Below are positions 31,509 to 50,477 of a stretch of 64,000 nucleotides of DNA, piece by piece. The translations under genes and the position numbers were made by a program. The first letter of the stretch is position 1. The number at the start of each line of letters is the position of its first letter. The stretch is from a virus, in IMG/VR virus record IMGVR_UViG_3300023179_000040, positions 42,613 through 106,612 of that record; one strand, written 5' to 3'. The notes under the pieces are model-generated. The model did not search any database. It had not been told where the DNA came from and saw only the letters and a list, made by a program, of their open reading frames with translations.

Positions 31509-32536
31509 TATTGAAGTATGTTGCATACAGCATCGCCAACCGACTGGTGTTTGTTTTTGGAATGTTTTTGCTTAATTTTTTTATGTGATATATTGCTCAT
31601 TCTTGATAAAATATCCTCAACAGATATGCTATGCAAAAGGTCTTCTGTATCATATAAATTATTGATTTCAAGGCTATGTTCAGTATTATTAAATTGTGAA
31701 ATACTAATACAATCTTTATCTTGCATAGCTATATAGTAATCAAATAAATGCAAATAGGAATCTTCATTAAGAGCTAATAGACAGTCCATGCTATTTATTG
31801 CCGATATACATGTTTTTTCTTCTAGATCCATAAAATAAATTTTAATATTGATATTAGATATAATATTCAATTTGTTTTGTGTATCAAGTATAAATTTTTC
31901 TATAGACTCTTTGTCTGTTTGTGTGCCTCTTAAAAATAAAACTAATTTTTTAGATAAGTCAGCTCTGTATCCTATAAGAAAAGCTGTGATAATTTTTTCT
32001 ATAACAGGCCTATTTAAGCTATAGTAGCCTATAAAACCAAAGTAATAATCATTTAATTTACTTTTAAAGTCATATCTTTGAGAAATAAATTCTTTATTCA
32101 TATATGAAGTTATATCTTCATAGCAAACATGTATAGGTTTTTTAATTTCAGATTTAAGTAAGATTTGTTTTTCATATTCACTATTGACGATTATATGATC
32201 GCATCTATTTAATATTTGTAGATGACTATATTTTGATGCTTTATATAGCTTAGGATCAAGTATTGGTATGCAAATATTAGTCCATTTTGTAATAAAAGAT
32301 AATTCGCTAGGCTTACTATGACTTATGACAGCATCACATCTATCAAAGTTATTCGGTAAGGTTTCTTCGATATTCACATTAGTGTTTTTATTCATATCTA
32401 CCATGTAGGATAATGACCTACCATATACAGAAAATCGCCCAGCGCTTTTATTTTGTATAGAATTTAAATAGATTCTGGATAGTATACCGTCTATACCATT
32501 ATTGCGATATGGACCTATATATATTAGATTTTTCAT
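31508..32536 (-). CDS. Glycosyltransferase-like protein (GT-B type)
   Basis: A 342-residue protein opening with NLIYIGPYRNNGIDGILSRI, a typical GT-B N-terminal donor/acceptor loop. Later parts include CDAVISHSKPSELSFI, CDHIIVNSEYEKQILLKS, the pattern 'x-x-V-x-S-E-Y' used by GT4-like enzymes, and YYFGFIGYYSLNRPVIEKII where the second Rossmann domain starts. The C-terminal SMDCLLALNEDSYLHLFDYYIAM corresponds to the nucleotide-sugar site but lacks the usual second Glu. The C terminus is Lys/His-rich. Coupled by 4 nt to the upstream GT4 enzyme. Likely an active or accessory sugar transferase; substrate unknown. Confidence 0.6.
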   Translation of the reverse strand: MKNLIYIGPYRNNGIDGILSRIYLNSIQNKSAGRFSVYGRSLSYMVDMNKNTNVNIEETLPNNFDRCDAVISHSKPSELSFITKWTNICIPILDPKLYKASKYSHLQILNRCDHIIVNSEYEKQILLKSEIKKPIHVCYEDITSYMNKEFISQRYDFKSKLNDYYFGFIGYYSLNRPVIEKIITAFLIGYRADLSKKLVLFLRGTQTDKESIEKFILDTQNKLNIISNINIKIYFMDLEEKTCISAINSMDCLLALNEDSYLHLFDYYIAMQDKDCISISQFNNTEHSLEINNLYDTEDLLHSISVEDILSRMSNISHKKIKQKHSKNKHQSVGDAVCNILQ

Positions 32537-34245
32537 ATATTTAATGGATTAATGGTATTTTGTTTAATAGAGGCGTATTGTATAAAATCATCCGTAAAAT
32601 CTATATTTTGTATTCTTGCTTGTTCTGATTGATTATTGTTGTTAATAACCATGTTAGCAAAATTAATAGCGTCACCGAACGAATGCTTATTTACCGACAT
32701 ACCATGCATACTAAAGCCATAATCAGCTTGTTGCATTAGGTTTAGAGAGATCATAGATCCTATTAAGTTTTTATTACCAAGTCTTTTTGCAAATATGTTG
32801 TTAATTATACTATAATGATTATTTGGTGATACATTGGACAATTTTTGATCTAGTGGTTCAAAAAATGCTGGTGCTGCATCCCATTTCGGCTGACATGATT
32901 CTGCTAAGTGATCCAAATGTTTTATCCATTTATTGGCTATATCGTCCCAATGATAGTATTTTTCTGTTAATTTTCTTGTTTCATCGCCCAAGACTTTTCT
33001 TTCATCTTCACTCATATTTGCGACGGTAATAATGGCTGATGATAGTTGTTTATTATCTGGATATACTCTTATAGCTTTAGTTTCTAGCTCTTTAAAAAAT
33101 GCTGCCGGTTGTATGGGAATAGCATTTAATTTTTTAACAATGTCGCACATAGCACTATAATTCACTGTGATAATCGGCAATCCAGATGCTCCAGCCTCGG
33201 TCTGAGGACATCCAAACCCTTCACATATCGAGTACTGAATATATGCATCAAAAGAGCTATAAACCTTAGCTAATTGATCTGATGTGATACCGTTTGTTAC
33301 AGAGGAAAACGTCATTAATTTTTCCATACATGATGGACAAGCTATAGCGGGTCCGGTAAATACTTTAGATAGTACTGCACCGCACTTACGACATAAATAG
33401 GTAAAAAATACTCTATTACATAATCTATTGTCTTTAAGTATTTCTGGAATATCCCAACCAGCATCAGGATAGCTAGTATGTAAATATAGATAAAGTTTAG
33501 ATGCTTTATCAGGATCAGTTTCTGATAGTTTGTCTAGCGCATTTCTAAATGATAAAAATAATTCTGGAATTAGTTTGCGTTTTTGATTTCTCATAACAGA
33601 TCCAAAAATAATAGCATCTTCCGGAAGACCTAAAATTTTTCGGATTTGATTTTTTTCTTGTTTGCTACGATTTTGAAAAATAGATAAATCTACACCCGGA
33701 GAAACTGTAGCTATATAATTAATTTTATTAGAGCTTTGCTGCTTTAATACTTCTGCTCCCCAATCAGAATATGTAAAAACACTATCGGCTGAAAGAAATG
33801 TATCAATCCAATCTTCTTGTTGTGGTGCAGAATCGACAGTAGGCATTAGGATCCAATGGAAAAATTTTCTAAGAGGAGATAATGCCTGATATGAATTCAT
33901 CCAATAATCTCTGATATCTATCACTATATCTGGCTTAAAATCTAAAAGAACTTTTTCAAATCTCCATCTACCGAATTGATTATCTGATCTAGATGAGTAT
34001 TCGCTATATCTAGGATCGTCCTCCCTAACAGCATTAGCATAATATTTCCATGGAATATTTTTATCTCTCGGATCATTGACTAAACCATAACATGCAAATT
34101 CTGCTATATCATATTTATTGGTCTTATATAGTCTTGATAATATCTCTCTAGTATAAACAGCAAATCCGGAACTAAGAAAGCTAGCTTCGGATACCATTAA
34201 TATTCTGAGTTTGCGTTTTTTGGTAATCAAAGACAAATGTTCCAT
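32533..34245 (-). CDS. GT4-family glycosyltransferase with inserted zinc ribbon
   Basis: About 570 residues from ATG 34245; a GTG at 34290 would add 15 residues that cross a G+C-rich hairpin, so I prefer the ATG. The N-terminal domain begins LRILMVSEASFLSSGFAVYTREIL, the GT-B acceptor side. VSPGVDLSIF and SVMRNQKRKLIPELF open the donor domain, and SICEGFGCPQTEAGASGLPII gives the E-x7-E motif (E342, E350). Between them CRKCGAVLSK...CPSC (Cys 285, 288, 303, 306; CX2CX14CX2C) forms a zinc ribbon placed inside the donor domain. About 130 extra residues follow the catalytic domain. It is the first gene of the coupled glycan block. It should transfer a hexose from a nucleotide sugar in the cytoplasm; acceptor unknown. 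Confidence 0.8.
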   Translation of the reverse strand: MEHLSLITKKRKLRILMVSEASFLSSGFAVYTREILSRLYKTNKYDIAEFACYGLVNDPRDKNIPWKYYANAVREDDPRYSEYSSRSDNQFGRWRFEKVLLDFKPDIVIDIRDYWMNSYQALSPLRKFFHWILMPTVDSAPQQEDWIDTFLSADSVFTYSDWGAEVLKQQSSNKINYIATVSPGVDLSIFQNRSKQEKNQIRKILGLPEDAIIFGSVMRNQKRKLIPELFLSFRNALDKLSETDPDKASKLYLYLHTSYPDAGWDIPEILKDNRLCNRVFFTYLCRKCGAVLSKVFTGPAIACPSCMEKLMTFSSVTNGITSDQLAKVYSSFDAYIQYSICEGFGCPQTEAGASGLPIITVNYSAMCDIVKKLNAIPIQPAAFFKELETKAIRVYPDNKQLSSAIITVANMSEDERKVLGDETRKLTEKYYHWDDIANKWIKHLDHLAESCQPKWDAAPAFFEPLDQKLSNVSPNNHYSIINNIFAKRLGNKNLIGSMISLNLMQQADYGFSMHGMSVNKHSFGDAINFANMVINNNNQSEQARIQNIDFTDDFIQYASIKQNTINPLNI

Positions 34246-34263
34246 AAAAATATGTGTGTCGAA

Positions 34264-34281
34264 GGGGCGTATTTCAGCCCC
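34264..34281 (-). other. Short G+C-rich hairpin between ssb and the glycan block
   Basis: On the minus strand GGGGC-TGAAATAC-GCCCC forms a 5-bp perfect stem with an 8-nt loop in an otherwise A+T-rich 77-nt gap. No adjacent U-run follows, so it is a poor intrinsic terminator. It could be an mRNA processing or translation-control element before the glycosyltransferase gene. Confidence 0.35.
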
Positions 34282-34321
34282 AACGAACACAACTAGTTAA
34301 TGATATAAATTATATAATCAC

Positions 34322-34702
34322 TTAAAAAGCAACGGTTTCAGTCGTATCAGACTGGCTTACCTTCATCTGCTTAGAAAGCTTAGTAATCTTAGAGAAGTTA
34401 TTTACTCTAACCTTCAAACTACTATGCTTAACTCCATCCTTTTCCCAGCTATCATTTCTGAGAGAACCTTCTACTAGTACTAGATCGCCCTTTTTAAAAG
34501 ATGATCCAATAACATCAGCCCCACTATCCCAAGCTTCACAGTTGATAAAAGAAGTAATCTTATCCTTTTCACCGCTAGCCTTCGTATATTCCCTAGAAAC
34601 TGCAACAGTAAAATTAACCACAGATGTCTGCTTACCACCAGTATTAACAACTCGTAGCTCAGGATCTCTAGCTAAATTACCTCTCAAAATAGTAATATTC
34701 AT
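34322..34702 (-). CDS. ssb: Single-stranded DNA-binding protein
   Basis: A 126-residue bacterial-type SSB with an AAGGAG ribosome site 5 nt before the ATG. The OB fold is clear: MNITILRGNLARDPELR, VVNFTVAVSREY, SFINCEAWDSGADVIGSSFKKGDLVLVEGSLR, and HSSLKVRVNNF. The C-terminal tail is short and ends ETVAF; it has only two acidic residues rather than the DDDIPF tip of cellular SSBs, so partner binding may differ. It coats single-stranded DNA at the phage replication fork. It has its own sigma70-like promoter inside the end of the polymerase gene, which would allow high expression independent of the replisome operon. Confidence 0.93.
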   Translation of the reverse strand: MNITILRGNLARDPELRVVNTGGKQTSVVNFTVAVSREYTKASGEKDKITSFINCEAWDSGADVIGSSFKKGDLVLVEGSLRNDSWEKDGVKHSSLKVRVNNFSKITKLSKQMKVSQSDTTETVAF

Positions 34703-34748: not shown

Positions 34749-34776
34749 ATCATAGGTCCGCCCAAGAAGCTGTCAA
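34749..34776 (-). promoter_or_regulatory. Sigma70-like promoter of ssb
   Basis: Minus strand: a perfect TTGACA (34776-34771), 16-bp spacer, TATGAT (34754-34749). The -35 overlaps the stop codon of the polymerase C-terminal half. Transcription would start near 34742, giving a leader of about 40 nt with AAGGAG. Confidence 0.65.
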
Positions 34777-36395
34777 GTTTTGGGCATAAAACATTTTTCT
34801 ACCAGAAAACCGTCCTTTGTGTTGCTTTTTTTTCCTACAAAAACTAGCACATTACCGACAAATAGATGATGTTTATAAACACTGAGCTGATCTGGAAAGA
34901 AAATAACAGAATCCAATAATCCATAAGCATCTTCTATGCTAACAAAAGCCATCTCTTGTCCTGGATTTTTACCGGTCTTAGTCTTTATAATATTTATATT
35001 GCTTATCTCTCCCGCCAAAATAATATTTTCTCGTAAATGAGTATTTTTAAATTCTTTACAGTTTGTGTTTGCCATGCTAATATCGTAAGAATCTAATTTT
35101 GAACAGGATATAGATACTCCTAGCAGACCACTTTCGGAATCAGATAGCCATTCTATCTTATCTATCAGAGAATACGGCGGATTCTTTAAAGAACCAATCA
35201 AGTGATTAATATGCTCTACTCGTTTTTTAGTTATCTTCATAGTTAGTAATCTAACCAGAGCATCGGATAAAGATATTTTTGGGGCTTTATTGATAATGTC
35301 AATAAGTTGAGAAAGCTCCTTTTTTGTTAATGAAGATATGGTTTCGTATTCAAAAAGCATTTCAGATCTATTCTTTTTGAAATAATCCATAGCGCCACCA
35401 CCAATAAGTGCTTTTGATGCTATTGAATTTAAATTAACTAAAATATTAGATAGGGTTTGTAAATATGAAAAACTATTAAGATCTATATTTTCTGTTAGAT
35501 CTAATATCTTTTGATATACTGAGTCTCCGACTCCTTTGATGTCTGTTAAACCAAAATGTATATTTTTATTAACAATAGCAAAATGCCTATTTTTTAGTCT
35601 TAGGTCTGGTAATCTAATATCTATGCCCATTTCATTAGCATTACGAACCAACTCTTTTATTTCTTGTTGTGGATCTATTTTGTCTTTGGCAAATTTCAAA
35701 TATGAAGCAAAAAATACTCTTGGGAAATGCGTCTTTGTATATGCAGAAAGATAAGCATTCATTGCGTAGCTAATACTATGAGACTTATTAAAGCTATATC
35801 GTTGACTTTTTTCGATCCAACTGAAAATTTCTTCTGCTTGTTTTTCAGTGACTATACCTTGAGTTTTAGCTCCCGATAAAAATTTATGTTTAATTTTGGC
35901 CATTTCTTCCGGTTTCTTTTTACCAATAGCTTTTCTAAGCATGTCTGCTTCTTGCAAATCAAAACCGGCTATATCGTGAGCTATTTGCATACTTTCTTCT
36001 TGATAAATCATCTCGCCATAAGTTGTTTTAAGGGCGGGTTCTAATGATGGATGGAAAAAATCAATACTTTCTTGTCCATTCTTTTTATCTATATAATGAT
36101 TAGTAATGCTCTTGTTGTCTCTCACAGACTCTAAGCATCCCGGTCTTAAAATAGCAATCAAGCCAGATAACTGCTCTATATTTTCTGGCTTAAGTTTTTT
36201 AGACATCATTTGTCCTAGTCTTGACTCCAATTGAAAACACCCCTTAGTATTTCCACTAGATATCAAATCCCAAGTTTTGCTACAATCAAGACTAATATCC
36301 TCTATCTTGGCAGAGAAATCTATTTTGGGAGTTTTCCCTGTATTATCGATAATAGGAAATTTACAACCGCAATCAAAACCAAAATACTCAGACAT
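34773..36395 (-). CDS. dnaE: DNA polymerase III alpha subunit, C-terminal half (fingers, HhH, OB)
   Basis: 540 residues equivalent to the part of bacterial DnaE after the palm. It starts with KTWDLISSGNTKGCFQLESRLGQMM (FQLES finger motif), IAILRPG, DFFHPSLEPALKTTYGEMIYQEESMQIA, ADMLRKAIGKKKPEEM, and YSFNKSHSISYAMNAY, all fingers hallmarks. A helix-hairpin-helix-like segment (FGLTDIKGVGDSV) and a C-terminal OB domain (LAGEISNI...MAFVSIEDAYG) follow. The catalytic aspartates lie on the separate upstream gene 37261-39126. The two products must assemble to form the replicase. It overlaps the exonuclease gene by 8 nt. No intein sequence is present at the break. Confidence 0.9.
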   Translation of the reverse strand: MSEYFGFDCGCKFPIIDNTGKTPKIDFSAKIEDISLDCSKTWDLISSGNTKGCFQLESRLGQMMSKKLKPENIEQLSGLIAILRPGCLESVRDNKSITNHYIDKKNGQESIDFFHPSLEPALKTTYGEMIYQEESMQIAHDIAGFDLQEADMLRKAIGKKKPEEMAKIKHKFLSGAKTQGIVTEKQAEEIFSWIEKSQRYSFNKSHSISYAMNAYLSAYTKTHFPRVFFASYLKFAKDKIDPQQEIKELVRNANEMGIDIRLPDLRLKNRHFAIVNKNIHFGLTDIKGVGDSVYQKILDLTENIDLNSFSYLQTLSNILVNLNSIASKALIGGGAMDYFKKNRSEMLFEYETISSLTKKELSQLIDIINKAPKISLSDALVRLLTMKITKKRVEHINHLIGSLKNPPYSLIDKIEWLSDSESGLLGVSISCSKLDSYDISMANTNCKEFKNTHLRENIILAGEISNINIIKTKTGKNPGQEMAFVSIEDAYGLLDSVIFFPDQLSVYKHHLFVGNVLVFVGKKSNTKDGFLVEKCFMPKT

Positions 36396-37083
36396 TTAAA
36401 AATGATCCCTTAAATTTAATTTTATTAGATAGATTTCTATGTAATTTCATAAATCTTATAAGGATATTCGCGGTATCTTTAACGTCCTTGAGTGCGTCGT
36501 GGGCACCTTCTTTGGATATACCCATATAATCACGCAAAGTATCTAATGTATAGTTTTTAAGTTCACTATTGTTTTCAAACCAATAGAACACAACGTTCAT
36601 TAAGTCTATTACATCTCTTGGATAAAATAAGCTGGTACGACCTTCTTTATTAAGATTATTGTACTTTTGACTCAGACGATCTATAATACGCAAATCAAAT
36701 CTATTGATATTATATCCAGCGGCAATGGGGGCACTAAAACAAGACTTTCTTTCGGATCTAGAATGATACATTTCTAAATATGATGTAAACAATTTCCATC
36801 CATGATCTTGCTTTTGAAAAGAATGCCACTCCTTCAAAATATCTGCTTTAGTTGATGATCTAACCTTAGCATGAAAGTCTAAAACATCACTATCACTATA
36901 ATCATAGTTTGGGTTATCACTAAGTTGTTCTGGTTTGAGAGTTATATTAAACTCAGAACTAGAAATAATATCTAACTTTATTGGATCAATCATCACAGCT
37001 GCAATTTGTACCGGGCTACACTTATCAGGATTCGATCCGTCAGTTTCCAAATCAAAAACACAAATTTTTTGTAAATTAGGCAT
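36388..37083 (-). CDS. DnaQ-like 3'-5' proofreading exonuclease (DEDDh)
   Basis: A 231-residue DnaQ/epsilon-type exonuclease. ExoI FDLETDG (D11, E13), ExoII GYNINRFDLRII (D130), and ExoIII AHDALKDVKDT (H195, D200) make the DEDDh set complete. It would remove misincorporated nucleotides for the phage polymerase III alpha subunit. The gene sits between the two halves of the split alpha subunit and overlaps both neighbouring genes (8 nt each), so the three replisome parts are produced together. No clamp-binding motif is obvious at the C terminus (FKGSFLNV). Confidence 0.9.
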   Translation of the reverse strand: MPNLQKICVFDLETDGSNPDKCSPVQIAAVMIDPIKLDIISSSEFNITLKPEQLSDNPNYDYSDSDVLDFHAKVRSSTKADILKEWHSFQKQDHGWKLFTSYLEMYHSRSERKSCFSAPIAAGYNINRFDLRIIDRLSQKYNNLNKEGRTSLFYPRDVIDLMNVVFYWFENNSELKNYTLDTLRDYMGISKEGAHDALKDVKDTANILIRFMKLHRNLSNKIKFKGSFLNV

Positions 37084-37258
37084 TAACGCTCACCACTGTA
37101 TTGTCTTGAACAAATATCCTTGCCGTATTATTATCTACCAAATAAGCATTAATTGATTGACAGCAACTTACCCTAACATTTTCTATCTTAACATATTCTG
37201 TACCGTTAAGATTAAATTTATCGCCTACTCTAACTTCAGCAAAAGTTTTTTCTACCAT
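37076..37258 (-). CDS. Small conserved phage protein, SCC-SINA type
   Basis: A 60-residue protein: KTFAEVRVGDKFNLNGTEYVKI, then VRVSCCQSINAYLVDN, ending with TVVSVNA. The G-D-x-F...YVKI...SCC-x-S-x-NA pattern is one I have seen in many small phage and bacterial proteins of unknown role. It is a compact beta fold. It lies between the polymerase N-terminal half (2-nt gap) and the exonuclease (8-nt overlap), so it belongs to the replisome operon. Function unknown. Confidence 0.7.
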   Translation of the reverse strand: MVEKTFAEVRVGDKFNLNGTEYVKIENVRVSCCQSINAYLVDNNTARIFVQDNTVVSVNA

Positions 37259-37260
37259 TC

Positions 37261-39126
37261 TTATTCTCCATTTTTAAGTAGTTCTGATATAGTCATCACT
37301 TTATCTAACATTGCTACTCCTAGAATATCAAATTTTATTACACCCAAAGATTCTAGGTCCTGCATCTCCATACCAGCAATTAATTGATCGTTTTTTGAAT
37401 CATAAATCATTGGACAAACATCGCTAAGATCATCAGTACTAATAACGATTCCGGCAGCATGTTTGGATTGATTAGATTTTGTTCCCTCTAGACGAATAGC
37501 TTGTTCAAATCTTTTAGCCATAGGACCAGATAAAACACCATCGTCATTAATATAGCACCATTCTTTGAGTTTGTCAACATTATTTTCTAATGCCCATCGT
37601 ATGATCGAAGCTTCACCCGTATCCTCTTTCATTTCTTGAAGTTCGTCGGCAATTTTGGCTTCGTCTGGTATATTTTTAGTAATACGATTCATTTCTTCAA
37701 ATGATATATTTCCATATACTCTAAGAACTTCTTTTAAAGCCCCTCTGCCTTTCATAGTATTGTATGTAATCATTTGAGATACTTTATTATGTCCATATTT
37801 ATTTTTGATATATGTAATAATATCTTCTCTCTTATTAATAGGAACATCTACATCAATATCTGGCATGGAGATTCTATCGGCTGTATTTCTACCAGCATTA
37901 TAAAAACGACTAAATAATAAATCGTATTTAATAGGATCAATCGATGTAATTCCTATAAGATAAGATACTAAACACCCCGCCGCTGATCCTCTACCCGGAC
38001 CCGGCAACCATCCATTAGATCTCACATATTCCAATATGTCTTGTAAAATTAAAAAATAACTAGATAACCCCGCACCTTGTAAAATATCTAATTCTTCTTT
38101 TATTCTATTTACATATATTTGTTGCTTATCTTTATCTATAGTGTTGGCGATTTTATCTTTCCACCCTTTTCTGCATAAATGTCTCAGATATTCATCAGGA
38201 CTAAGTCCGTCTGGACACGAGAAAGATGGTAAAGATGGCTTACTTAGTATATCGTACTCTTCAATCATACTATTTACATAATTAGTATTTTCAATTTCTT
38301 CTTCTGTATGCAAATGTCTCATTTCTTCAGGTGATAGTATATAATAATTTTCTGATTTAAAGAAACATGACATTGGAACATCCTCATTGTTGAGCATTTT
38401 TTTATTAATGTCAATCAATGTTGTTTTTAAATTATTACATAATAATATTCTTTGATCTACGGCATCTGATTTTTCACAATAATGAGCATCTGGTGTGCAA
38501 ATAACCTTGGTTCCTGTTTTTTCTCCAATAGCTATCATTAAATCTGATAGGTCTTTTTGCTCCGGTAGATTTTCGTGATCCATTAGTTGTGATTCAAGAA
38601 AGAAGTTCTCTTTCCCAAAGACGGAACGCATTTCTGCAACAAATTCTATACCTAATTTTAGACTATCGTTGGGTTGACTTAATAGTTTATTAGCTAGACA
38701 AGATCCCAAGTGACCACAAAATGCTATTAGATTGCCATCAACTATCTCTGCTAATTTATCAAAACTAATTCTAGGCTTATGATAGAAATTATCTTTATGG
38801 TTAGTAGCAGATACTATCTTGATCAGATTCTTCCATCCTTTGAAGTTTTTAGCTAATACAACCAAATGTCCTAATTTACTATTTTCTTTGGTTTTGATAG
38901 ATGAATTTTGTTCACTAATATATAATTCACAGCCTAGTATTGGTTTTATATTTTTAGATCTCATAGCCTGATAAAATTGTACAGCGCCGGATATAGTCCC
39001 GTGATCTGTCAAGGCACAAGACGAAACCCCTATTGACAAACATCTGTCAGCAATTTGATGAGGCTTACTTAGACCATCTAATAAAGAAAAATGTGAATGT
39101 ACATGCAAAGGAATATACGGATTCAT
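37261..39126 (-). CDS. dnaE: DNA polymerase III alpha subunit, N-terminal half (PHP and palm)
   Basis: 621 residues. The PHP domain opens with LHVHSHFSLLDGLSKP and CALTDHGTISG. The palm has WLPGPGRGSAAGCLVSYLIGI, MPDIDVDVP (catalytic D423, D425) and VIKFDILG (third aspartate D600). The frame stops 21 residues after that aspartate, before the fingers, which are encoded by 34773-36395. All three metal-binding aspartates are therefore on this fragment. It overlaps the RecB-like nuclease gene by 4 nt. The bacterial protein is about 1100-1160 residues, and 621 plus 540 match that total, so no large part is lost. This is a genuine gene split, not a frameshift, because two genes lie in the gap. Confidence 0.92.
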   Translation of the reverse strand: MNPYIPLHVHSHFSLLDGLSKPHQIADRCLSIGVSSCALTDHGTISGAVQFYQAMRSKNIKPILGCELYISEQNSSIKTKENSKLGHLVVLAKNFKGWKNLIKIVSATNHKDNFYHKPRISFDKLAEIVDGNLIAFCGHLGSCLANKLLSQPNDSLKLGIEFVAEMRSVFGKENFFLESQLMDHENLPEQKDLSDLMIAIGEKTGTKVICTPDAHYCEKSDAVDQRILLCNNLKTTLIDINKKMLNNEDVPMSCFFKSENYYILSPEEMRHLHTEEEIENTNYVNSMIEEYDILSKPSLPSFSCPDGLSPDEYLRHLCRKGWKDKIANTIDKDKQQIYVNRIKEELDILQGAGLSSYFLILQDILEYVRSNGWLPGPGRGSAAGCLVSYLIGITSIDPIKYDLLFSRFYNAGRNTADRISMPDIDVDVPINKREDIITYIKNKYGHNKVSQMITYNTMKGRGALKEVLRVYGNISFEEMNRITKNIPDEAKIADELQEMKEDTGEASIIRWALENNVDKLKEWCYINDDGVLSGPMAKRFEQAIRLEGTKSNQSKHAAGIVISTDDLSDVCPMIYDSKNDQLIAGMEMQDLESLGVIKFDILGVAMLDKVMTISELLKNGE

Positions 39127-40205
39127 TCTGTGCTTCCAGGAGCCTTATATTTACCAAAAGAATGGTTCGGGTGTTTGTACAAATCTACCACGGCGTTCAT
39201 TCCGTGCAAGTCTATATCATGTTTGATTTGTTCGCATTTGGTCATAGTTGTTCCTATGTTACAAATTTGCCCTTCCCTATATTCTGTTTGTGCCGGTATA
39301 TGGGTGTTCTCAAAAGTTGTTTTACCAAAATGACACAACTTATTACACATCCAGCTCTTATTAAGTTTTGGTCTTCTGGTATTTTTAACAATCTCAAACT
39401 TTTTTCTTAGCATATCCTCGGTTTTAGGTAGATCCGATTTATCGAAACATATCGAAAAAGGCCCGCCGTCATTTATAAAATATATAGAAAAAATGATATG
39501 ATTTATATTTGGATACAGATGGTTAACGGCGTAATGATATATTCTTAATTGAGGATCGTTTTCAAGTTTTTCTTGGGTTTTTTCTTCTCCAGTTGCCCAA
39601 TCCAATCTTCTACCGCTCTTCCAGTCTATAATTTCTATAGTATTATCATTAACTTGAGTTATTAGGTCTATAGTACCCTTAATAGCTAAATAGCCTTCAA
39701 GTTTACCTTCTGATGTATCATATTCATAATATGACCATGGTTTTTTTATTTCAATATCAAAATGTTGTTCTGGTTGAAGTATAAGTCTATTTCTTGGATC
39801 AAACATACCATTATTAAATTCAATAGCCTTATATACCCAGGCATGACAATCTTTATAGTCTTTAACTGACCATTTATGGTGGGGATTTGCTTCAGAATAG
39901 TATTTATATATTTTTTCAATTAATGTGTTTAAATTATAGCTATTACAGTCAACAGGACCTAAGATATCATCCTCTACCGATGATATTTTGTCTTGCTGTG
40001 CTTTTTTAATAACTGCTAAAATTTCCAATACCTTATGTAGTATTGTACCCTTATCGGCCTTATGTCCGGATGGTCCTCTCCAACCCAAAACATATTCGGC
40101 AAAAAATTGCTGTTCGCACATACTATGAGTATTATAGGATGAGCTTCTAAAATAAGTAACTATTATGACATCACCTCTAATAGAATTTTTTGTAGTTCCA
40201 TACAC
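39123..40205 (-). CDS. RecB/Cas4-like PD-(D/E)XK nuclease with possible Fe-S cluster
   Basis: A 360-residue protein. Motifs of the RecB nuclease family: YNTHSMCEQQFFAEYVLGW, KGTILHKVLE (H57), KGTIDLI (D180), and EIIDWKSGRRLD (D194, K196), followed by a Q-x-R-I-Y-H-Y-A helix. Cysteines at 30, 287, 291 and 315 have the split spacing of the 4Fe-4S cluster in Cas4 and AddB nucleases. It would process DNA ends or flaps during replication and recombination. The ATG overlaps the preceding kinase gene by 43 nt; the next ATG would remove the first conserved motif, so I keep this start. Strongly linked to replisome genes on both sides. Confidence 0.85.
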   Translation of the reverse strand: MYGTTKNSIRGDVIIVTYFRSSSYNTHSMCEQQFFAEYVLGWRGPSGHKADKGTILHKVLEILAVIKKAQQDKISSVEDDILGPVDCNSYNLNTLIEKIYKYYSEANPHHKWSVKDYKDCHAWVYKAIEFNNGMFDPRNRLILQPEQHFDIEIKKPWSYYEYDTSEGKLEGYLAIKGTIDLITQVNDNTIEIIDWKSGRRLDWATGEEKTQEKLENDPQLRIYHYAVNHLYPNINHIIFSIYFINDGGPFSICFDKSDLPKTEDMLRKKFEIVKNTRRPKLNKSWMCNKLCHFGKTTFENTHIPAQTEYREGQICNIGTTMTKCEQIKHDIDLHGMNAVVDLYKHPNHSFGKYKAPGSTE

Positions 40206-40882
40206 TGATCATAGATATTTAGGTCTTTATTATCTACGATATAGTCGAAATTTGCCCAATCATAAGATTCTTTATTTAAGATATTTTCACTGATATGATC
40301 CGATTTAAATGGTTCTTTTGTTAATCTGATAACTTTACCATTATTCGCTCGTATAGCTTCCACTTCATTTGGAAATCTACAATCCGTAATAATTGCTAAT
40401 TTTGGTTTTTCTCTAGCTATCTTTTTTAAAGTAGCATCAACCCATACATTTGGTTTTAATGATCTGAATATATCAGTACCGACAAATTGCATAATATCAC
40501 GAGCCGTCATATTTTTATTATCTATATACATATCAGTATATGTATTTTTATCATCATCTGAACCATAGCACTGATCATAGTCCATACCTAGTATATTCAT
40601 ACAAATATCTTGTTTCAGAATATCTGCAAAACTATATAGTTTAATTTCTGGATCAAGTAATGAAAAAACTTGTTGCAATATGAAGTCGTTATGATTGCGT
40701 TTACAAGGATCGAATACTCCTCTGTATAGAGGATTTTTTAATAAATCGGAAACTTCTATTTGCCCCGAGTTATTGATTTGTATCTTATCGCACACTTCTA
40801 AATTAGCCATAAAAATAGAAAAGAAAAAATTACCAGAGGTGGTTTTACCAGATTGTTTTTTCCCAGAAATACCTATAATCAT
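40163..40882 (-). CDS. Deoxynucleoside monophosphate kinase-like P-loop protein
   Basis: A 239-residue protein with Walker A IIGISGKKQSGKTT at the N terminus. TARDIMQFVGTDIFRSLKPNVWVDA and LAIITDCRFPNEVEAI are typical for phage dNMP kinases of the T4 gp1 type. It would phosphorylate dNMPs released from host DNA or made by the phage. Its N terminus overlaps the primase end by 4 nt, and its end lies inside the nuclease gene's start. Acts in the cytosol alongside the dCMP deaminase and ribonucleotide reductase encoded upstream. Confidence 0.85.
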   Translation of the reverse strand: MIIGISGKKQSGKTTSGNFFFSIFMANLEVCDKIQINNSGQIEVSDLLKNPLYRGVFDPCKRNHNDFILQQVFSLLDPEIKLYSFADILKQDICMNILGMDYDQCYGSDDDKNTYTDMYIDNKNMTARDIMQFVGTDIFRSLKPNVWVDATLKKIAREKPKLAIITDCRFPNEVEAIRANNGKVIRLTKEPFKSDHISENILNKESYDWANFDYIVDNKDLNIYDQCMELQKILLEVMS

Positions 40883-42045
40883 ATATAATCTTTAATTTGT
40901 GGTATAATTTGTTGATTAATTTCGTCCAAAGTCATATCTGCAACATCTTGTGATGAAATATCTATATTAATAATATTGTATGTTTTTTCACATTTTGATC
41001 TGATTTGTTGAGCGGCTTTTTTACCAGCATCATCATTATCCATTATGGTTATAATAGTCATAGCGCCAGAAGTATCCAGTATCATTTTTTGTCGATCACC
41101 TAAGGAAGATCCAAATATACCAACAACATTCAATATACCCGCCTCCGATAATCTCCAAACATTTCCTGGGCTTTCAACAAGAATTACTGCAGCAGTTTCT
41201 TTGATTCTAGGTTTAGCTACCCAATAATTGTATAGGTGTTCTTGCGTTTTAAATCCTGTATTATGTCTCCATTTGGAATATTTCCAAATATTTTCTTGTG
41301 ATGGACACGATTGTGCTGGGTCGTGATAAGCTCTGCAAGAAGAACATTTTTCATATATACTTCTACCAGTACATCCAACCATATATTTATGGTCTTCATC
41401 ATATATAGGTACCACCGCTCTTCCGTACATTTCTTTATCTAAGATTTTACAATCCCCAACATCATAATTAATTAAAGTTTGTTTATTAAAACCTCTAGAT
41501 ATAAAATAATCAGAAGGAATATTTAAACTTTTTCTGATAATATCTTTAGATATTTTGGTAATATTATTATGATTGTTATTACTCAGATATTTGACAGTAT
41601 TGACGAACGTACTTTTTTCTTTATATTTTCTAGAAACTTTAATAGAGTCTAGATCTTGTTCAATAAAAGATAAAGCGAAATCTAGAGCCTCTTGAAATGA
41701 GCACATCTGATCGCCTTCCTTATTCCACCCATAAGAATTATGAGACAAACAGCCACGTATAAAACCTATAATAGAGCCCTTGAAGACTTCTTCACATTGA
41801 TGGGTTCTACATTTCCAATTACCTCTATAATGATCTCCTTGATAATAAATATTTAGGGCTGTCTCATTATCTCCACCATGTATAGGACAACTCATGGCTA
41901 TTAGCTTACCAAGATTTTTATATGACTCGATACCTAGTATATTCAATAAACCATCAATATCATTACAAAGCATATCTGATATATATTTCAGTTTTGCTTG
42001 ATCATACGAACGGTATGTTTTCTGTTTGTTCTTCATGGTTATCAT
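40879..42045 (-). CDS. DnaG-type DNA primase with CHC2-like zinc site and Toprim
   Basis: A 388-residue primase. The zinc site at the N terminus reads CPIHGG (C53, H56) and CRTHQC (C79, C84). A second Cys cluster, CSSCRAYHDPAQSC, is unusual and lies ahead of the Toprim. The Toprim shows VILVESPGNVWRLSEAGI with the catalytic Glu and IMDNDDAGKKAA with the DxD. ISRGFNKQTLINYDVG fits the primase core. It makes RNA primers for lagging-strand synthesis. It overlaps the helicase gene by 44 nt (35 nt if the ATG at 42036 is used), so the two are coupled. It lacks the long C-terminal helicase-binding domain of cellular DnaG. Confidence 0.88.
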   Translation of the reverse strand: MITMKNKQKTYRSYDQAKLKYISDMLCNDIDGLLNILGIESYKNLGKLIAMSCPIHGGDNETALNIYYQGDHYRGNWKCRTHQCEEVFKGSIIGFIRGCLSHNSYGWNKEGDQMCSFQEALDFALSFIEQDLDSIKVSRKYKEKSTFVNTVKYLSNNNHNNITKISKDIIRKSLNIPSDYFISRGFNKQTLINYDVGDCKILDKEMYGRAVVPIYDEDHKYMVGCTGRSIYEKCSSCRAYHDPAQSCPSQENIWKYSKWRHNTGFKTQEHLYNYWVAKPRIKETAAVILVESPGNVWRLSEAGILNVVGIFGSSLGDRQKMILDTSGAMTIITIMDNDDAGKKAAQQIRSKCEKTYNIINIDISSQDVADMTLDEINQQIIPQIKDYI

Positions 42046-43471
42046 TGATTATAAACCCAGCCTCATTAGTCTTATTGTTGTGCATTACTTCTAATTTTGT
42101 TTTACCTTCTACGATCTTAGCACACCAACCCTTCATATGACAATTTATATAGTCATTATCGTCTAATCCTCCTCCATGTCTACTAATAACAGGAATAAGC
42201 TTTCTATTACCGGACTTTCCACCATCTTCCGCAATTTCTTCATCTGATTTTCTTTTGAAGATAGAAAAATTACTACACAACCAAATAATTCTATCTGATC
42301 CACTAGCTGAATCGGTGCTTTCTTTAGTGATACCGTCGCGGTTCAACTGAATAAAAGCTAAAATAGGCACCTTGTATTTAACGGCAAAATTATGCAAAGC
42401 TGTCATCATGAAGCCTAGAATTTGATATTCTTTTAAGTCTTGAGATAACCCATTAGAATCCATAAGCTTGAGATAATCATATATAATAACGCAATCTTTT
42501 GCTGTACCGTCATCATTCAAACCAACATCTTTGACTAACCATCTACGCATTATAGCTAATTGTTCATCAAATGGTTTTCCTGCAATAGATTTATGAAATA
42601 ATGGTGCATTTTTTAGCACCGATACCGCTTCTTTAATTTTGGCGCTATTTACAGGCGACTCAGCAAATTTTCCGCTCTCAATTTTATTAATTTCTATTTC
42701 GGTAGACATAGCTAATAGTCTATGTATATGGTCTTCTTTATTCATTTCTGTATCCATATTCAATACCGGAATATTCTGTTTGGCGATGTGTAGCCCGATA
42801 TTATCAGATAGTAATGTTTTACCAACCTTTGGTCTAGCACCAATAACATTGATGGTGCCTTTTCTTAATCCTCCGCCAATTGCTTGATCATAAACAGGTA
42901 AGCCGGTTGAAATACCCACTTGATCAACAGGATTGCTTTGTAAATAGTCTATATAGTCATCAATACCATCTGATATTGGAATAGGATTATTGTCTTTATC
43001 GTTATTTAATGACGAACCAAAATTGAGCACAGTATCTTCTGCTATACCTAGAATAGAAGAAATACTCTCAGAGCCATTAATATCTAAAAGCTTTTCTTGA
43101 GTATCTCCAAGGGCTTTATGTAAAGATCTAGCTATTTCTAGCTTGCGAATCTTAACTGCAAATTTTCTAATATTCTCTTTTAGAACAGGAAAGTCCTTGA
43201 TAGCTTTTAAATGCTGTGTTTCCTCTTTTTGAGATAAGATATGGGATACGCCTAGTTCTTGCGCCTTAGAATATATAGATGCTATATCTATAGACTTAAT
43301 ATTTTGATCTTTTTCTATTAAGTCTTTACAACACCTAAAAATCATTTGGTTACTATCAACAGTAAATGTTGAATCCTGTACAATATCGCTAATGTCAAGA
43401 TAAACATCTTCACCGAACTGTAACAATCCACTTAAAACCGCTCTTTCTGCCGAAGTATCACACAAAATCAT
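42002..43471 (-). CDS. DnaB-type replicative helicase
   Basis: A 489-residue protein. The N-terminal domain (CDTSAERAVLSGLLQFGEDV) and helical linker are of DnaB type, and the RecA-like motor has INVIGARPKVGKTLLSDNIG (Walker A, residues 211-219), VLNMDTEMNKEDHIHRLLAM, CVIIYDYLKLMD (Walker B) and KVPILAFIQLNRD (sensor). It unwinds DNA at the replication fork as a hexamer. The order helicase-primase-kinase-nuclease-polymerase on one strand suggests a single replisome operon. Length fits the family (about 450-480). Ends with acidic NDNHEEQTENIPFV inside the primase start. Confidence 0.93.
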   Translation of the reverse strand: MILCDTSAERAVLSGLLQFGEDVYLDISDIVQDSTFTVDSNQMIFRCCKDLIEKDQNIKSIDIASIYSKAQELGVSHILSQKEETQHLKAIKDFPVLKENIRKFAVKIRKLEIARSLHKALGDTQEKLLDINGSESISSILGIAEDTVLNFGSSLNNDKDNNPIPISDGIDDYIDYLQSNPVDQVGISTGLPVYDQAIGGGLRKGTINVIGARPKVGKTLLSDNIGLHIAKQNIPVLNMDTEMNKEDHIHRLLAMSTEIEINKIESGKFAESPVNSAKIKEAVSVLKNAPLFHKSIAGKPFDEQLAIMRRWLVKDVGLNDDGTAKDCVIIYDYLKLMDSNGLSQDLKEYQILGFMMTALHNFAVKYKVPILAFIQLNRDGITKESTDSASGSDRIIWLCSNFSIFKRKSDEEIAEDGGKSGNRKLIPVISRHGGGLDDNDYINCHMKGWCAKIVEGKTKLEVMHNNKTNEAGFIINDNHEEQTENIPFV

Positions 43472-43880: not shown

Positions 43881-44352
43881 GTTTCACCTTAGACTTTTGT
43901 ATAGATAACATAATATCGGACAAATGTTTTATATTATTCGCTAAATACTGTAATCTGTCACTACGTTGTTTCGCGTATTTTTTTATCTTATTCAAAGATA
44001 TGGCTTTATCATTATTCTTAATTGCTTGATAAGATTTCTCTATATACCCATAACCTTTATAGTTATTAATATCATCGGCTATAGTCTCTTTTATTGTTTC
44101 ATCGGCCCAATTTAGTCTGGCTAATTCTCTATTAAGAGATCTTTGAATATGAAAAGCAAATTGACTTAATCTATATGCTATTTCACCACAAACTTCTGGT
44201 GTTGTTTTTTCTAGTTCATCTCTTGTCATTTGAAAATATTGATTTAATTCAGCCTCTGGTAAAGCATCATTCTTATATGTGCCTAATCCTATACTTCGCT
44301 CATATTCATCCAATACTTTATCCCATTCAGTAACTTGATCTTTAGTATTCAT
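43870..44352 (-). CDS. Helical protein of the replication operon
   Basis: 160 residues from the ATG at 44352, which follows AGGA by 6 nt; an ATG eight codons upstream (44376) is possible but would overlap the previous gene more. The protein is almost fully helical: VTEWDKVLDEYERSIGLG, ELNQYFQMTRDELEKTTPEVC, AYRLSQFAFHIQRSLNREL, and a basic C terminus. Placed between RecA/nuclease and helicase, so a helicase loader or mediator role is conceivable, but no loader motif is recognised. Unknown function. Confidence 0.6.
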   Translation of the reverse strand: MNTKDQVTEWDKVLDEYERSIGLGTYKNDALPEAELNQYFQMTRDELEKTTPEVCGEIAYRLSQFAFHIQRSLNRELARLNWADETIKETIADDINNYKGYGYIEKSYQAIKNNDKAISLNKIKKYAKQRSDRLQYLANNIKHLSDIMLSIQKSKVKHGS

Positions 44353-44749
44353 TTTTAATCCTACTTGGCCATTCATCTATTTTATCAAACGGTAGCTCTA
44401 TATGTTCTATATCGTTAATAAGACACCATTCTTTTTTATCTTGATCTCTTTTTTTGTGATTTATAAATCCTAGAGTTGTATGGTGGAAGAATCTATTAAA
44501 TTTATAGTGTTGTTCTCCATGAACCTCTATACATCTTTTAATTAATGGCAAATAGAAATCCAAATATAAAGTTTCTGATCTCCTTACCATAATAGGAACT
44601 TCTTCTAATAATTGCAATGTTGGGAAGCATGATTTAATTAAATTTCTAGCTTCTAAATGCAACGAAGACTTATTATGCAAACTACCATTAGCGATGGTAC
44701 CAATTAATTGCCAGTTATAAGAATTACCATCCAAATCCTTCACTTGCAT
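44342..44749 (-). CDS. Vsr/DUF559-like PD-(D/E)XK nuclease
   Basis: A 135-residue protein. ETLYLDFYLPLIKRCIEVHGEQHYKF has the D...E-x-H/D-G-x-QH arrangement of the small PD-(D/E)XK nuclease branch, followed by KKRDQDKKEWCLIN and IEHIELPFDKIDEWP, matching the R-D...L...G...I-x-I end of the fold. Its start overlaps the RecA gene by 10 nt and its end overlaps the helical-protein gene. In the recombination block a structure-specific or nicking nuclease is likely. It shares fold type with 26873-27694 but lacks its helix-turn-helix. Confidence 0.7.
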   Translation of the reverse strand: MQVKDLDGNSYNWQLIGTIANGSLHNKSSLHLEARNLIKSCFPTLQLLEEVPIMVRRSETLYLDFYLPLIKRCIEVHGEQHYKFNRFFHHTTLGFINHKKRDQDKKEWCLINDIEHIELPFDKIDEWPSRIKNEY

Positions 44750-47956: not shown

Positions 47957-48541
47957 TTATCCGAAATATGATGGTGGTATATACATTAACCATTCTTGTG
48001 GAATGTCATGTCTTATAGTAGATAGGTGATAGGACACAGGCAAGTATTTAAGATTTTTTTGTGGACACACTGGGATACTTAATAAGGGCATATTAGCTTG
48101 CTTTGGCGTCTTATTGTCCTTTTTTCTATTACAGTCTACACATGCAGTTACTATATTAGTCCAACAAGTTGGTGATGATATATTAAAATTCCATTTAGAT
48201 TTTGGTATAACATGATCATATGTTAATTTACTAATGTCTTTTTTAATACCGCAATATTGACAGGTATAATTATCTCTAATAAAAATATTTTTACGAGAAA
48301 AATTTACACGTTGAAAATTGAGTTTGAAATATTTACAAGTTCTCATAACACAAGGAATTGGGTATCTCTTATTATTTGTTCCAATAATATAATCGTCTTT
48401 ATAGAAATCCATAACTTCTATATCTCTATGAGATCCATTTTCATACTTTAAACTCCAAACAACTGCTCTTCTCCAATCTATTATACCTAATGGAGAATAA
48501 TCAGCGTTTAGAACTAAGCATCTATTGTTTTCCTGTTTCAT
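47957..48541 (-). CDS. HNH endonuclease
   Basis: A 194-residue protein. The C-terminal half has YTCQYCGIKKDISKLTYDHVIPKSKW, then TNIVTACVDCNRKKDNKTP, a CxxC...CxxC zinc frame enclosing DH and N, the HNH fold. The N-terminal half (CLVLNADYSPLGIIDWRRAVVWSL) is the arm typical of the phage and bacterial HNH group that cleaves DNA near its own gene. Its ATG lies inside the end of phoH (20-nt overlap). It may be a free-standing homing nuclease protecting an intein-bearing neighbour, or a phage DNA-processing enzyme. Confidence 0.8.
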   Translation of the reverse strand: MKQENNRCLVLNADYSPLGIIDWRRAVVWSLKYENGSHRDIEVMDFYKDDYIIGTNNKRYPIPCVMRTCKYFKLNFQRVNFSRKNIFIRDNYTCQYCGIKKDISKLTYDHVIPKSKWNFNISSPTCWTNIVTACVDCNRKKDNKTPKQANMPLLSIPVCPQKNLKYLPVSYHLSTIRHDIPQEWLMYIPPSYFG

Positions 48542-50477
48542 TTTCGTAAGAATCTAACCTGCTAATAATTTTACCTATAATAGGATTTCTAACAATATCG
48601 CTATTATTTAGTACAGCCAATCCTATGCCATCGATACCATGAAGAGCTTCTATCATATTATAGAAACCTCCTTGCATATGTCTATGCAAATCCGATTGGC
48701 TAGTATCTCCTGTTAATATCATTTTACTATTATTGCCTATTCTTGTTAGTAACATTTTTAGTTGATCATAAGATGCATTCTGACATTCATCAGCAACGAT
48801 AAAAGCATTATGAAAATTACGACCTCTCATTAAACCTAAAGGAACAATTTCAATTCTGTTATTTGTCTTTAATGATGTGTATTCAGCCATAGAGATAAAA
48901 TGATTAATTTCATCTAATAATGGTAATAGGTATGGGTGTAATTTTTCTTCTGCTGTATTATGAGTTACAATATAATTATCAGTAATATATAAGTGTTCTG
49001 GATGTTCGACTCTAATACACTGTACAGGTTTGGCTACTGTCTCAACTATATCACAAATACCGATACCATGCATAAAATTATTTTTATATTTATTAGCCTT
49101 TCTAGATATATAAAATGGATTCATATCATTGGGCAAAGTAATCGTGAATTCATAACTAATATGTCTAGCTGTTATTATTCTATTTGTTTTTTTAAGTACG
49201 GATGTCCTACCTCTACGATTTATAGATCTCAATTTGGCTCTACCTCCAAGAGATTGTACTAATTCTATCACATCTTGAGCCAATTGTTTGGATGTAGTAC
49301 AGAAAGAAGCCTCTCCGGTCTTCTCTTTAACGCTACCATCTGTATCCATGAGTCCTCTAAGTAACTCTAATCTATCTGTAATCGATGAATATTTATAGAT
49401 GTTTGGAATAGATTTATGTATAGCTCTCTTACCTAGAATACCAAGATTATATATAATTTCTTTGGCCGGATTAGTATATTTTTTATTGGTGTTTTCAAAA
49501 GAATACTGAAGACCTTCTACACAAGACGATCTTCTACATCTAGCTTGTAAAGTATTATTATTTATTGCTAGGTTTTGAGAAGCCACTCCTACGGAGCTAT
49601 ACTTAGCAATATCGCCAGTATGTGTATTTATTACACAAACCCCTTTGGCTGTTTTTTTATTATATAGATTGGATCTAATATTATAGGATATCCTATTTGG
49701 CGACTGTTTGACACAATAACATCCTATAAGGGACATCTCTGTATTAACCTTCTCTATCAGCTCATTGTCTGTATTAGAGAAAGTAATACTATTAGATAGG
49801 CTACCATCTCCCAAAAGAACCCCTAGAGAATACGGAGCCATAGGTAATTTTTGTTGAATAAACTGCACCGGTTCATTTCTTGGTAAAAAATGATTAATTT
49901 TATTTTTATTGTTTAATAAAGACAAGGATATTTCTTTTGTTGTTTTGACGGATCCTTTCTTATTTCTTTTTTTATCAGAGGCTGTTTGAGTAAACCACAG
50001 ATGATCTTCACAACATTCTGTGCTTCTACCGTCTGTGGTGGTGATCCTGTATACTTGCTTTATGCCTTTTGGAAAAACTCCTACTACTTTAGTAGGTAGT
50101 CCGTCTCGACCAATTACCATATCTCCGAGTTTGATATCTCCCATTAATACCCATCCAGATGGAGTTAGTATTTTTGCATCCAGCGGTTGTGGTCCTGGTA
50201 AATATCCTATTTTTTCACCGGACTCTACTACTGGTCTAGTAATAATAATTTTCTTAACTTTATTATCTAATAAATACTCTAGTGCCATGCCGATAGCTAT
50301 GTGACTTTTCCCTGATCCTGCAACACCTTGACAAAATGTTATGGTGTTTTCGGCTACTGTTCTGATATATTCTTTTTGATTTTCACTTCTGGGTTTTAAT
50401 TGATTTCTGTATAATTGAGGAGCTTGTAATTCTTTTGTAGCATCTATAACCTTCTTCTTTTTATTATTTTTTCTCAA
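48522..50477 (-). CDS. phoH: PhoH-like ATPase interrupted by an intein
   Basis: 651 residues, of which 96-507 are an intein. The extein is 239 residues, the usual size for phage PhoH: RSENQKEYIRTVAENTITFCQ, Walker A GVAGSGKS (51-58), IIITRPVVESGEKIGYLPG before the intein, TAEEKLHPYLLPLLDE directly after it, AFIVADECQNASYDQLKMLLTR (Walker B) and LTGDTSQSDLH. It is a P-loop ATPase with a helicase-like fold, possibly linked to RNA metabolism. The insertion splits an invariant loop (LPG|TAEEKL), so protein splicing is required for function. A GGTGTAT motif lies about 50 nt upstream of the ATG. Confidence 0.92.
   Translation of the reverse strand: MRKNNKKKKVIDATKELQAPQLYRNQLKPRSENQKEYIRTVAENTITFCQGVAGSGKSHIAIGMALEYLLDNKVKKIIITRPVVESGEKIGYLPGPQPLDAKILTPSGWVLMGDIKLGDMVIGRDGLPTKVVGVFPKGIKQVYRITTTDGRSTECCEDHLWFTQTASDKKRNKKGSVKTTKEISLSLLNNKNKINHFLPRNEPVQFIQQKLPMAPYSLGVLLGDGSLSNSITFSNTDNELIEKVNTEMSLIGCYCVKQSPNRISYNIRSNLYNKKTAKGVCVINTHTGDIAKYSSVGVASQNLAINNNTLQARCRRSSCVEGLQYSFENTNKKYTNPAKEIIYNLGILGKRAIHKSIPNIYKYSSITDRLELLRGLMDTDGSVKEKTGEASFCTTSKQLAQDVIELVQSLGGRAKLRSINRRGRTSVLKKTNRIITARHISYEFTITLPNDMNPFYISRKANKYKNNFMHGIGICDIVETVAKPVQCIRVEHPEHLYITDNYIVTHNTAEEKLHPYLLPLLDEINHFISMAEYTSLKTNNRIEIVPLGLMRGRNFHNAFIVADECQNASYDQLKMLLTRIGNNSKMILTGDTSQSDLHRHMQGGFYNMIEALHGIDGIGLAVLNNSDIVRNPIIGKIISRLDSYENETGKQ
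48957..50192 (-). other. PhoH intein, class 3-like, with LAGLIDADG endonuclease
   Basis: Residues 96-507 of the PhoH gene (412 residues). It starts with Pro (PQPLDAKILTPSGWVLMGD) instead of Cys or Ser, so the usual first nucleophile is missing. The class 3 set is present instead: Trp161 in block B (CCEDHLW), Cys487 in block F (KPVQCIRVEHPEHLYI) and Thr505 before the terminal His-Asn (VTHN), with Thr508 as the +1 residue. LAGLIDADG motifs lie at 215-226 (PYSLGVLLGDGS) and 372-382 (LLRGLMDTDGS). Between them residues about 281-327 (VINTHTGDIAKYSSVGVASQ onward) look like a NUMOD1-type DNA-binding module. Confidence 0.85.

What the first reader, a model, noticed from the sequence alone, without database searches (positions are those of the whole stretch)
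34773..39126. Polymerase III alpha split in two genes with the proofreading exonuclease between
The PHP and palm (all three catalytic Asp) form one gene of 621 residues; fingers, HhH and OB form another of 540. The break lies 21 residues after the third catalytic Asp. The gap holds a 60-residue gene and a DEDDh exonuclease. Cyanobacterial dnaE is split by a split intein, but no intein halves are present here, so the replicase must assemble in trans without splicing. The order palm-exonuclease-fingers may favour co-translational assembly.
Basis: partly seen in the sequence, partly recalled or inferred. Interest (0 to 1): 0.72.

Follow-up and report, generated by a model that had tools for sequence, protein, structure and literature searches.

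The report
Viral DNA polymerase permanently cut in two
A large group of uncultured aquatic viruses encodes its only DNA-copying enzyme as two separate proteins, cut between the catalytic domain and the fingers domain with no sign of a splicing element, so the working enzyme very probably assembles from two pieces; in some relatives the two genes lie 12,000 bases apart.

Summary
A DnaE-type Pol III alpha is encoded as PHP+palm (37261-39126, 621 aa, all three catalytic Asp) and fingers+HhH+OB (34773-36395, 540 aa). A 60-aa gene and a DEDDh exonuclease lie between. Asp600 is followed by 21 residues and a stop. No intein half or known intron is at the break.

The arrangement is not a local accident. 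Of 177 distinct related loci, 171 carry the same split. The catalytic residues checked in both halves are invariant, and substitution is strongly purifying. It is the only DNA polymerase found in 12 large related contigs (106-224 kb). Split inteins do occur in this family, but inside the halves, never at this break.

The order palm-exonuclease-fingers is not essential: in deep relatives the gap holds RNase HII, or 5-12 kb of glycosyltransferase and methyltransferase genes and no exonuclease, while the flanking nuclease and SSB genes stay in place. One relative (L295) has nuclease-fused polymerase-SSB, which looks like the uncut locus.

Best reading: insertional fission of dnaE at the palm/fingers boundary, giving an obligate two-subunit replicase that docks non-covalently, and a slot that then filled with varying genes. 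Assembly itself is inferred, not shown.

The parts
37261..39126 (-). N half of Pol III alpha: PHP + palm/thumb, 621 aa; catalytic D423, D425, D600; PHP signature HHDHEHHDH intact
37076..37258 (-). 60-aa small protein of unknown function (weak phrog_2183 match); lacking or replaced in some relatives, so not part of the core
36388..37083 (-). DEDDh (DnaQ-like) 3'-5' exonuclease, 231 aa; overlaps the start of the C half by 8 nt
34773..36395 (-). C half of Pol III alpha: fingers + HhH + OB, 540 aa; no C-terminal tau-binding domain
36282..36371 (-). CxC...C motif (C9, C11, C38) in the new N-terminal beta hairpin of the C half; in 26 of 29 split C halves, not in fused L295 or phiT1
34322..34702 (-). 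SSB, conserved downstream flank of the split locus
39123..40205 (-). PD-(D/E)XK nuclease, conserved upstream flank of the split locus
40163..40882 (-). deoxynucleoside monophosphate kinase, same replication operon
40879..42045 (-). DNA primase (Toprim), same replication operon
42002..43471 (-). DnaB-like replicative helicase, same replication operon

Best explanation
The virus encodes an obligate two-subunit Pol III alpha. An ancestral gene in the order nuclease-dnaE-SSB was broken at the palm/fingers boundary by insertion of other genes (insertional fission). The halves fold separately and dock non-covalently through the native palm/fingers interface into one active polymerase, without intein or RNA splicing. 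The new N-terminus of the fingers protein gained a conserved Cys-containing hairpin that may help docking. The slot between the halves has since held different cargo: here a small gene and a DnaQ-type proofreading exonuclease. Shown: the break, its conservation, intact catalytic residues in both halves, purifying selection, no intein or known intron, no other DNA polymerase found, variable cargo, and an uncut relative with the same flanks. Inferred: physical assembly, activity, and the role of the Cys hairpin.
For: 171 of 177 distinct related loci are split at this point. D423, D425, D600 and the fingers residues R154, K159, K160, K204, H206 are invariant. dN 0.13-0.29 with dS near or at saturation in N, C and exo. 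One Pol III fingers gene and no PolA, PolB or beta clamp in 12 contigs of 106-224 kb. Halves 5.0, 10.6 and 11.8 kb apart in L373, L372, L371, with the same nuclease upstream and, where the held stretch reaches it (L371, L373), the same SSB downstream. In L295/L376 the order is nuclease-fused polymerase-SSB. Confident models of each half alone (mean pLDDT 91.7 and 89.8) match Pol III alpha crystal structures.
Against: No direct evidence of association or activity. A complex could not be predicted with these tools. The fused L295 falls beside split L274 in the trees, so a single fission event needs one re-fusion; otherwise there were two fissions.
Confidence: 0.86

Rival explanations
1. Protein trans-splicing by unrecognised split-intein halves at the termini of the two halves joins them into one chain.
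For: Inteins are common in this virus group: PhoH and NrdA in the window, and split inteins inside polymerase halves of L040 and L357.
Against: The N half ends 21 residues after D600 and the C half has only about 30 residues before homology starts, too short for intein halves. No intein domain by Pfam. Where split inteins exist in the family they are easy to see and sit elsewhere.
Confidence: 0.02
2. An RNA intron (group I or II) spans the gap and is spliced out, giving a fused polymerase.
For: Introns or homing endonuclease inserts seem to break Pol III genes in some named phages (KLEB27-3 and Jayan).
Against: No Rfam match in the window, L019, L040 or L061. The gap is filled by closely packed, conserved genes, with exonuclease stop and C-half start no more than 10 nt apart in 118 of 123 loci. 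In relatives the gap holds up to 11.8 kb of other genes. Both halves keep their own stop and start.
Confidence: 0.02
3. The halves are decaying remnants or accessory factors, and the host polymerase replicates the virus.
For: No beta clamp was detected in 12 related contigs, so the virus leans on the host to some degree.
Against: All catalytic residues invariant, strong purifying selection on both halves, conservation across many contigs, and replication-operon neighbours.
Confidence: 0.04
4. The palm-exonuclease-fingers order is itself functional: adjacency drives co-translational assembly of a polymerase-proofreader complex.
For: Exonuclease and C half are tightly coupled in the exonuclease-bearing clade.
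Against: Deep relatives keep the split with no exonuclease between and with 5-12 kb of unrelated genes. N-to-exonuclease distances of about 6 kb occur in L374 and L375.
Confidence: 0.06

Closest known systems
Rossellomorea phage phiT1 (PV767480) gp20/gp19/gp18
   Same: Pol III alpha in two annotated genes broken at the same palm/fingers linker, with a small gene (49 aa) between
   Different: No exonuclease between; no CxC...C start; does not group with the split lineage plus L274 (AU p 0.0019), though a wider grouping that includes fused L295 is not rejected (p 0.31); probably an independent fission
Split minimal Pol III alpha of group 2.2 jumbo phages (Iyer et al. 2021, PMC7824862)
   Same: Pol III alpha core encoded as two standalone proteins proposed to reconstitute an enzyme
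   Different: Break is described as between NTP-binding and Mg/template-binding subdomains; minimal core without the other domains; the phages also have a family B polymerase. Here the palm is whole, PHP/HhH/OB are present, and no other polymerase is found
Cyanobacterial DnaE with a split intein
   Same: dnaE in two genes
   Different: Joined by protein trans-splicing; from own knowledge its break is at Y|CFNKSH, about residue 200 of the C half here, so well downstream of this break
Split PolB3 of Methanobacteriales (Kelman et al. 1999, cited in PMC4104785)
   Same: Replicative polymerase encoded by a split gene
   Different: Family B, archaeal, proposed in PMC4104785 to derive from erratic intein excision
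Fractured genes with split inteins and homing endonucleases (Dassa et al. 2009, cited in PMC6892783)
   Same: Genes interrupted by another ORF; truly present inside the halves of L040 and L357
   Different: No intein at the palm/fingers break

Membership tests
DnaE-type DNA polymerase III alpha | Three palm carboxylates | tested here: met
   D423, D425, D600 invariant in 26 of 26
DnaE-type DNA polymerase III alpha | PHP, palm, fingers, HhH, OB in this order | tested here: met
   Pfam and PHROGs; Foldseek to 2hpi, 7pu7, 3e0d; OB by PHROG and structure only
DnaE-type DNA polymerase III alpha | Single polypeptide | tested here: not met
   Two genes with own stop and start in 171 distinct loci
DnaE-type DNA polymerase III alpha | Beta-clamp binding motif and tau-binding C-terminal domain | tested here: inconclusive
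   The C half ends after OB, so no C-terminal domain; the region between HhH and OB is poorly conserved and no clamp motif was noticed by eye
DnaE-type DNA polymerase III alpha | Polymerase activity | not testable with these tools
   Needs biochemistry
Cyanobacterial split-intein DnaE | Intein halves at the break | tested here: not met
   No intein domain in either half; termini too short
Group 2.2 jumbo-phage split minimal Pol III | Break between NTP-binding and Mg-binding subdomains, minimal domains, PolB present | tested here: not met
   Palm intact in one gene; PHP, HhH present; no PolB in 12 contigs; definition from PMC7824862
Intron-interrupted gene | Intron RNA structure between the exons | tested here: not met
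   No Rfam family at gathering score in the window and three relatives; only described families are covered
DnaQ-like DEDDh exonuclease | D-E-D-H-D catalytic residues | tested here: met
   Invariant in 10 of 10

The most novel reading that the evidence does not exclude
The fission is maintained because it is useful. The break between two essential halves of the replicase is a protected landing slot where new genes (exonuclease, RNase HII, ThyX, UDG, glycosyltransferase islands up to 12 kb) can enter and be kept, and the fingers subunit carries a purpose-built Cys (perhaps zinc) docking module that exists only in split polymerases.
Probability: 0.3. Interest if true: 0.78.

Novelty: new variant of a known kind. 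Interest (0 to 1): 0.62.

Why it matters
Replicative Pol III alpha is normally one long chain. Here is a widespread natural lineage in which the catalytic palm and the fingers are different proteins and appear to be the only replicase. That gives a natural test of whether a C-family polymerase can be rebuilt from two parts, a ready-made split replicase for engineering, and a clear case of insertional fission with an uncut relative (nuclease-polymerase-SSB) for comparison.

Tried and rejected
Intron: rejected (and the gap contents). Intein at the break: rejected. KLEB27-3 as a precedent: rejected, its break lies later (after FQIE, inside the fingers) with an HNH gene, so it looks like an intron. 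Jayan: broken near residue 419 while nearly identical PS1 is whole, a different and recent break. Single origin including phiT1: rejected in one test (AU p 0.0019), but the wider set with L295 was not rejected (p 0.31), so left open. All split forms as one clade without L295: rejected (p 0.012), so either two fissions or one re-fusion. The 60-aa gene as an essential bridge: rejected because L009 lacks it. Gap as a general insertion hot spot: only partly supported. The nuclease-N gap also gains genes (18 of 165 loci, up to 1.9 kb), but gaps above 3 kb occur only between N and C. Papers: no description of this lineage's split was found in the held library, but several key papers are not held.

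Full report
What is there. The window is bases 42613-106612 of a 106,612-base IMG/VR virus record. On the minus strand a replication operon reads DnaB helicase, primase, deoxynucleoside monophosphate kinase, PD-(D/E)XK nuclease, N half of Pol III alpha, 60-aa gene, DEDDh exonuclease, C half of Pol III alpha, SSB. The N half holds PHP and the whole palm with D423, D425 and D600 and stops 21 residues after D600. The C half starts just before the fingers and holds fingers, HhH and OB. The break falls in the linker between palm and fingers.

Is it conserved. Searches of the viral contigs gave many relatives down to about 30-40% identity. In the first set, all 218 loci with both halves were split with an exonuclease between; these include repeated contigs. 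After removing duplicates, 171 distinct C-half sequences are split and 6 are fused. The catalytic Asp of the palm and the conserved fingers residues checked are invariant in all sampled split forms. Nonsynonymous change is far below synonymous change in N, C and exonuclease (synonymous sites are near saturation, so only the direction is safe). In 12 large related contigs there is exactly one Pol III fingers match and no PolA, PolB or beta clamp; all are possibly incomplete records. The split enzyme is therefore most likely the virus's replicase.

How the break is not bridged. Inteins occur in this virus (PhoH and NrdA), and split inteins with homing endonucleases occur inside polymerase halves of relatives: L040 at YSFNK|SH in the C half and L357 at GPGRG|SAAG in the N half. 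They are easily recognised, and none is at the palm/fingers break. No Rfam intron is present. In L371, L372 and L373 the two halves lie 11.8, 10.6 and 5.0 kb apart, separated by glycosyltransferase, methyltransferase and similar genes, yet still preceded by the same nuclease and, in the two stretches that reach it, followed by SSB. This makes splicing very unlikely and separate proteins very likely.

What lies between. The gap content varies while the break does not: 60-aa gene plus exonuclease here; exonuclease without the small gene in L009; an unrelated 89-aa gene plus exonuclease in L019; a 110-aa ORF, RNase HII and a zinc ribbon in L274; UDG in L291, ThyX in L232, RCC1 repeats in L343, aldehyde dehydrogenase and other metabolic genes in L375. 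Gaps above 3 kb were seen only between N and C, but smaller insertions also occur between nuclease and N. The exonuclease and C half stay closely coupled (118 of 123 within 10 nt). So the exonuclease is a frequent tenant of the slot, not the reason for it.

Origin. In trees of concatenated halves, the exonuclease-bearing clade and the far-apart clade form one group at 100/100, with split L274 and fused L295 as sisters to it. L295 has DnaB, primase, nuclease, fused polymerase, SSB in the same order, with an ordinary linker, so it looks like the uncut locus. L274, the far-apart clade and most of the main clade share a CxC...C start of the C half (26 of 29) that L295 and phiT1 lack. This favours one fission followed by re-fusion in L295, but the AU test rejects all split forms as one clade without L295 (p 0.012), so two fissions remain possible. 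Rossellomorea phage phiT1 has the same break with a 49-aa gene, probably independently (but).

How it works, in order of certainty. Shown: two genes, intact active-site residues on both sides, purifying selection, no splicing element, no other DNA polymerase found in 12 large contigs. Strongly implied: each half folds alone, as predicted models of N (pLDDT 91.7) and C (89.8) are confident and match Pol III alpha structures. Inferred: the halves dock at the native palm/fingers interface to form the active site; the Cys hairpin aids docking, perhaps through zinc; the host beta clamp is borrowed. Two possible proofreaders are present: the DEDDh exonuclease and a PHP site intact by the nine-residue signature used in PMC12926913; some relatives (L312, L321, L314) have lost the PHP site.

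Comparison with the known. Split replicative polymerases are a known kind: split-intein DnaE of cyanobacteria, split PolB3 of Methanobacteriales (PMC4104785), and a minimal split Pol III alpha in group 2.2 jumbo phages (PMC7824862). This one differs in break point, in being a full PHP-to-OB enzyme, in being apparently the only polymerase, in lacking any intein at the break, and in its variable cargo. A survey of named phages found 1297 records with a match to the junction query, 1146 of them with one place covering at least 80% of it, so the break is rare among cultured phages. PF07733 is reported as a frequent gene of a marine jumbo-phage group (PMC9123017), so relatives may have been sampled before, but I found no description of the split. 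Absence from the held papers is not proof of novelty.

Noticed in passing
window 48522-50477 and 50927-53707: PhoH and ribonucleotide reductase large subunit each carry an intein with a LAGLIDADG endonuclease domain.
   Followed up: partly
L040 12330-15343: C half further cut by a split intein at YSFNK|SH with a free endonuclease gene between, close to the cyanobacterial DnaE intein site; the polymerase is then encoded in three pieces.
   Followed up: partly
L357 1912-5042: N half cut by a split intein at GPGRG|SAAG with a separate endonuclease-like gene between.
   Followed up: partly
L312, L321, L314: PHP active site lost (and PHP shortened in L312/L321) while palm residues stay intact.
   Followed up: partly
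L371, L372, L373: N half carries an insert of about 110 aa just before the PDID motif that does not look like an intein.
   Followed up: no
L376 4703-8059 (minus strand): Fused Pol III alpha with the same nuclease and SSB flanks: candidate uncut locus.
   Followed up: yes
L253 4986-8268 (PV767480): Rossellomorea phage phiT1 has Pol III alpha split at the same linker, annotated as two alpha genes.
   Followed up: yes
L269 3914-8284 (OM634661): KLEB27-3 Pol III gene interrupted by an HNH gene inside the fingers, probably an unannotated intron.
   Followed up: partly
L260 3845-7458 (MH884512): vB_BpsS-140 Pol III alpha is not annotated and its reading frame is broken near residue 313.
   Followed up: no
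L233, L234, L235: Contigs of this virus group are binned into Alphaproteobacteria, Flavobacteriales and Chitinophagia genomes; probably viral contamination of the bins.
   Followed up: partly
window 32533-34290: Glycosyltransferase-like gene downstream of SSB resembles one downstream of the C half in the deep relative L274 (7006-8721).
   Followed up: no
window 44342-44749 and 47957-48541: Free-standing homing/HNH endonuclease genes in the replication region.
   Followed up: no
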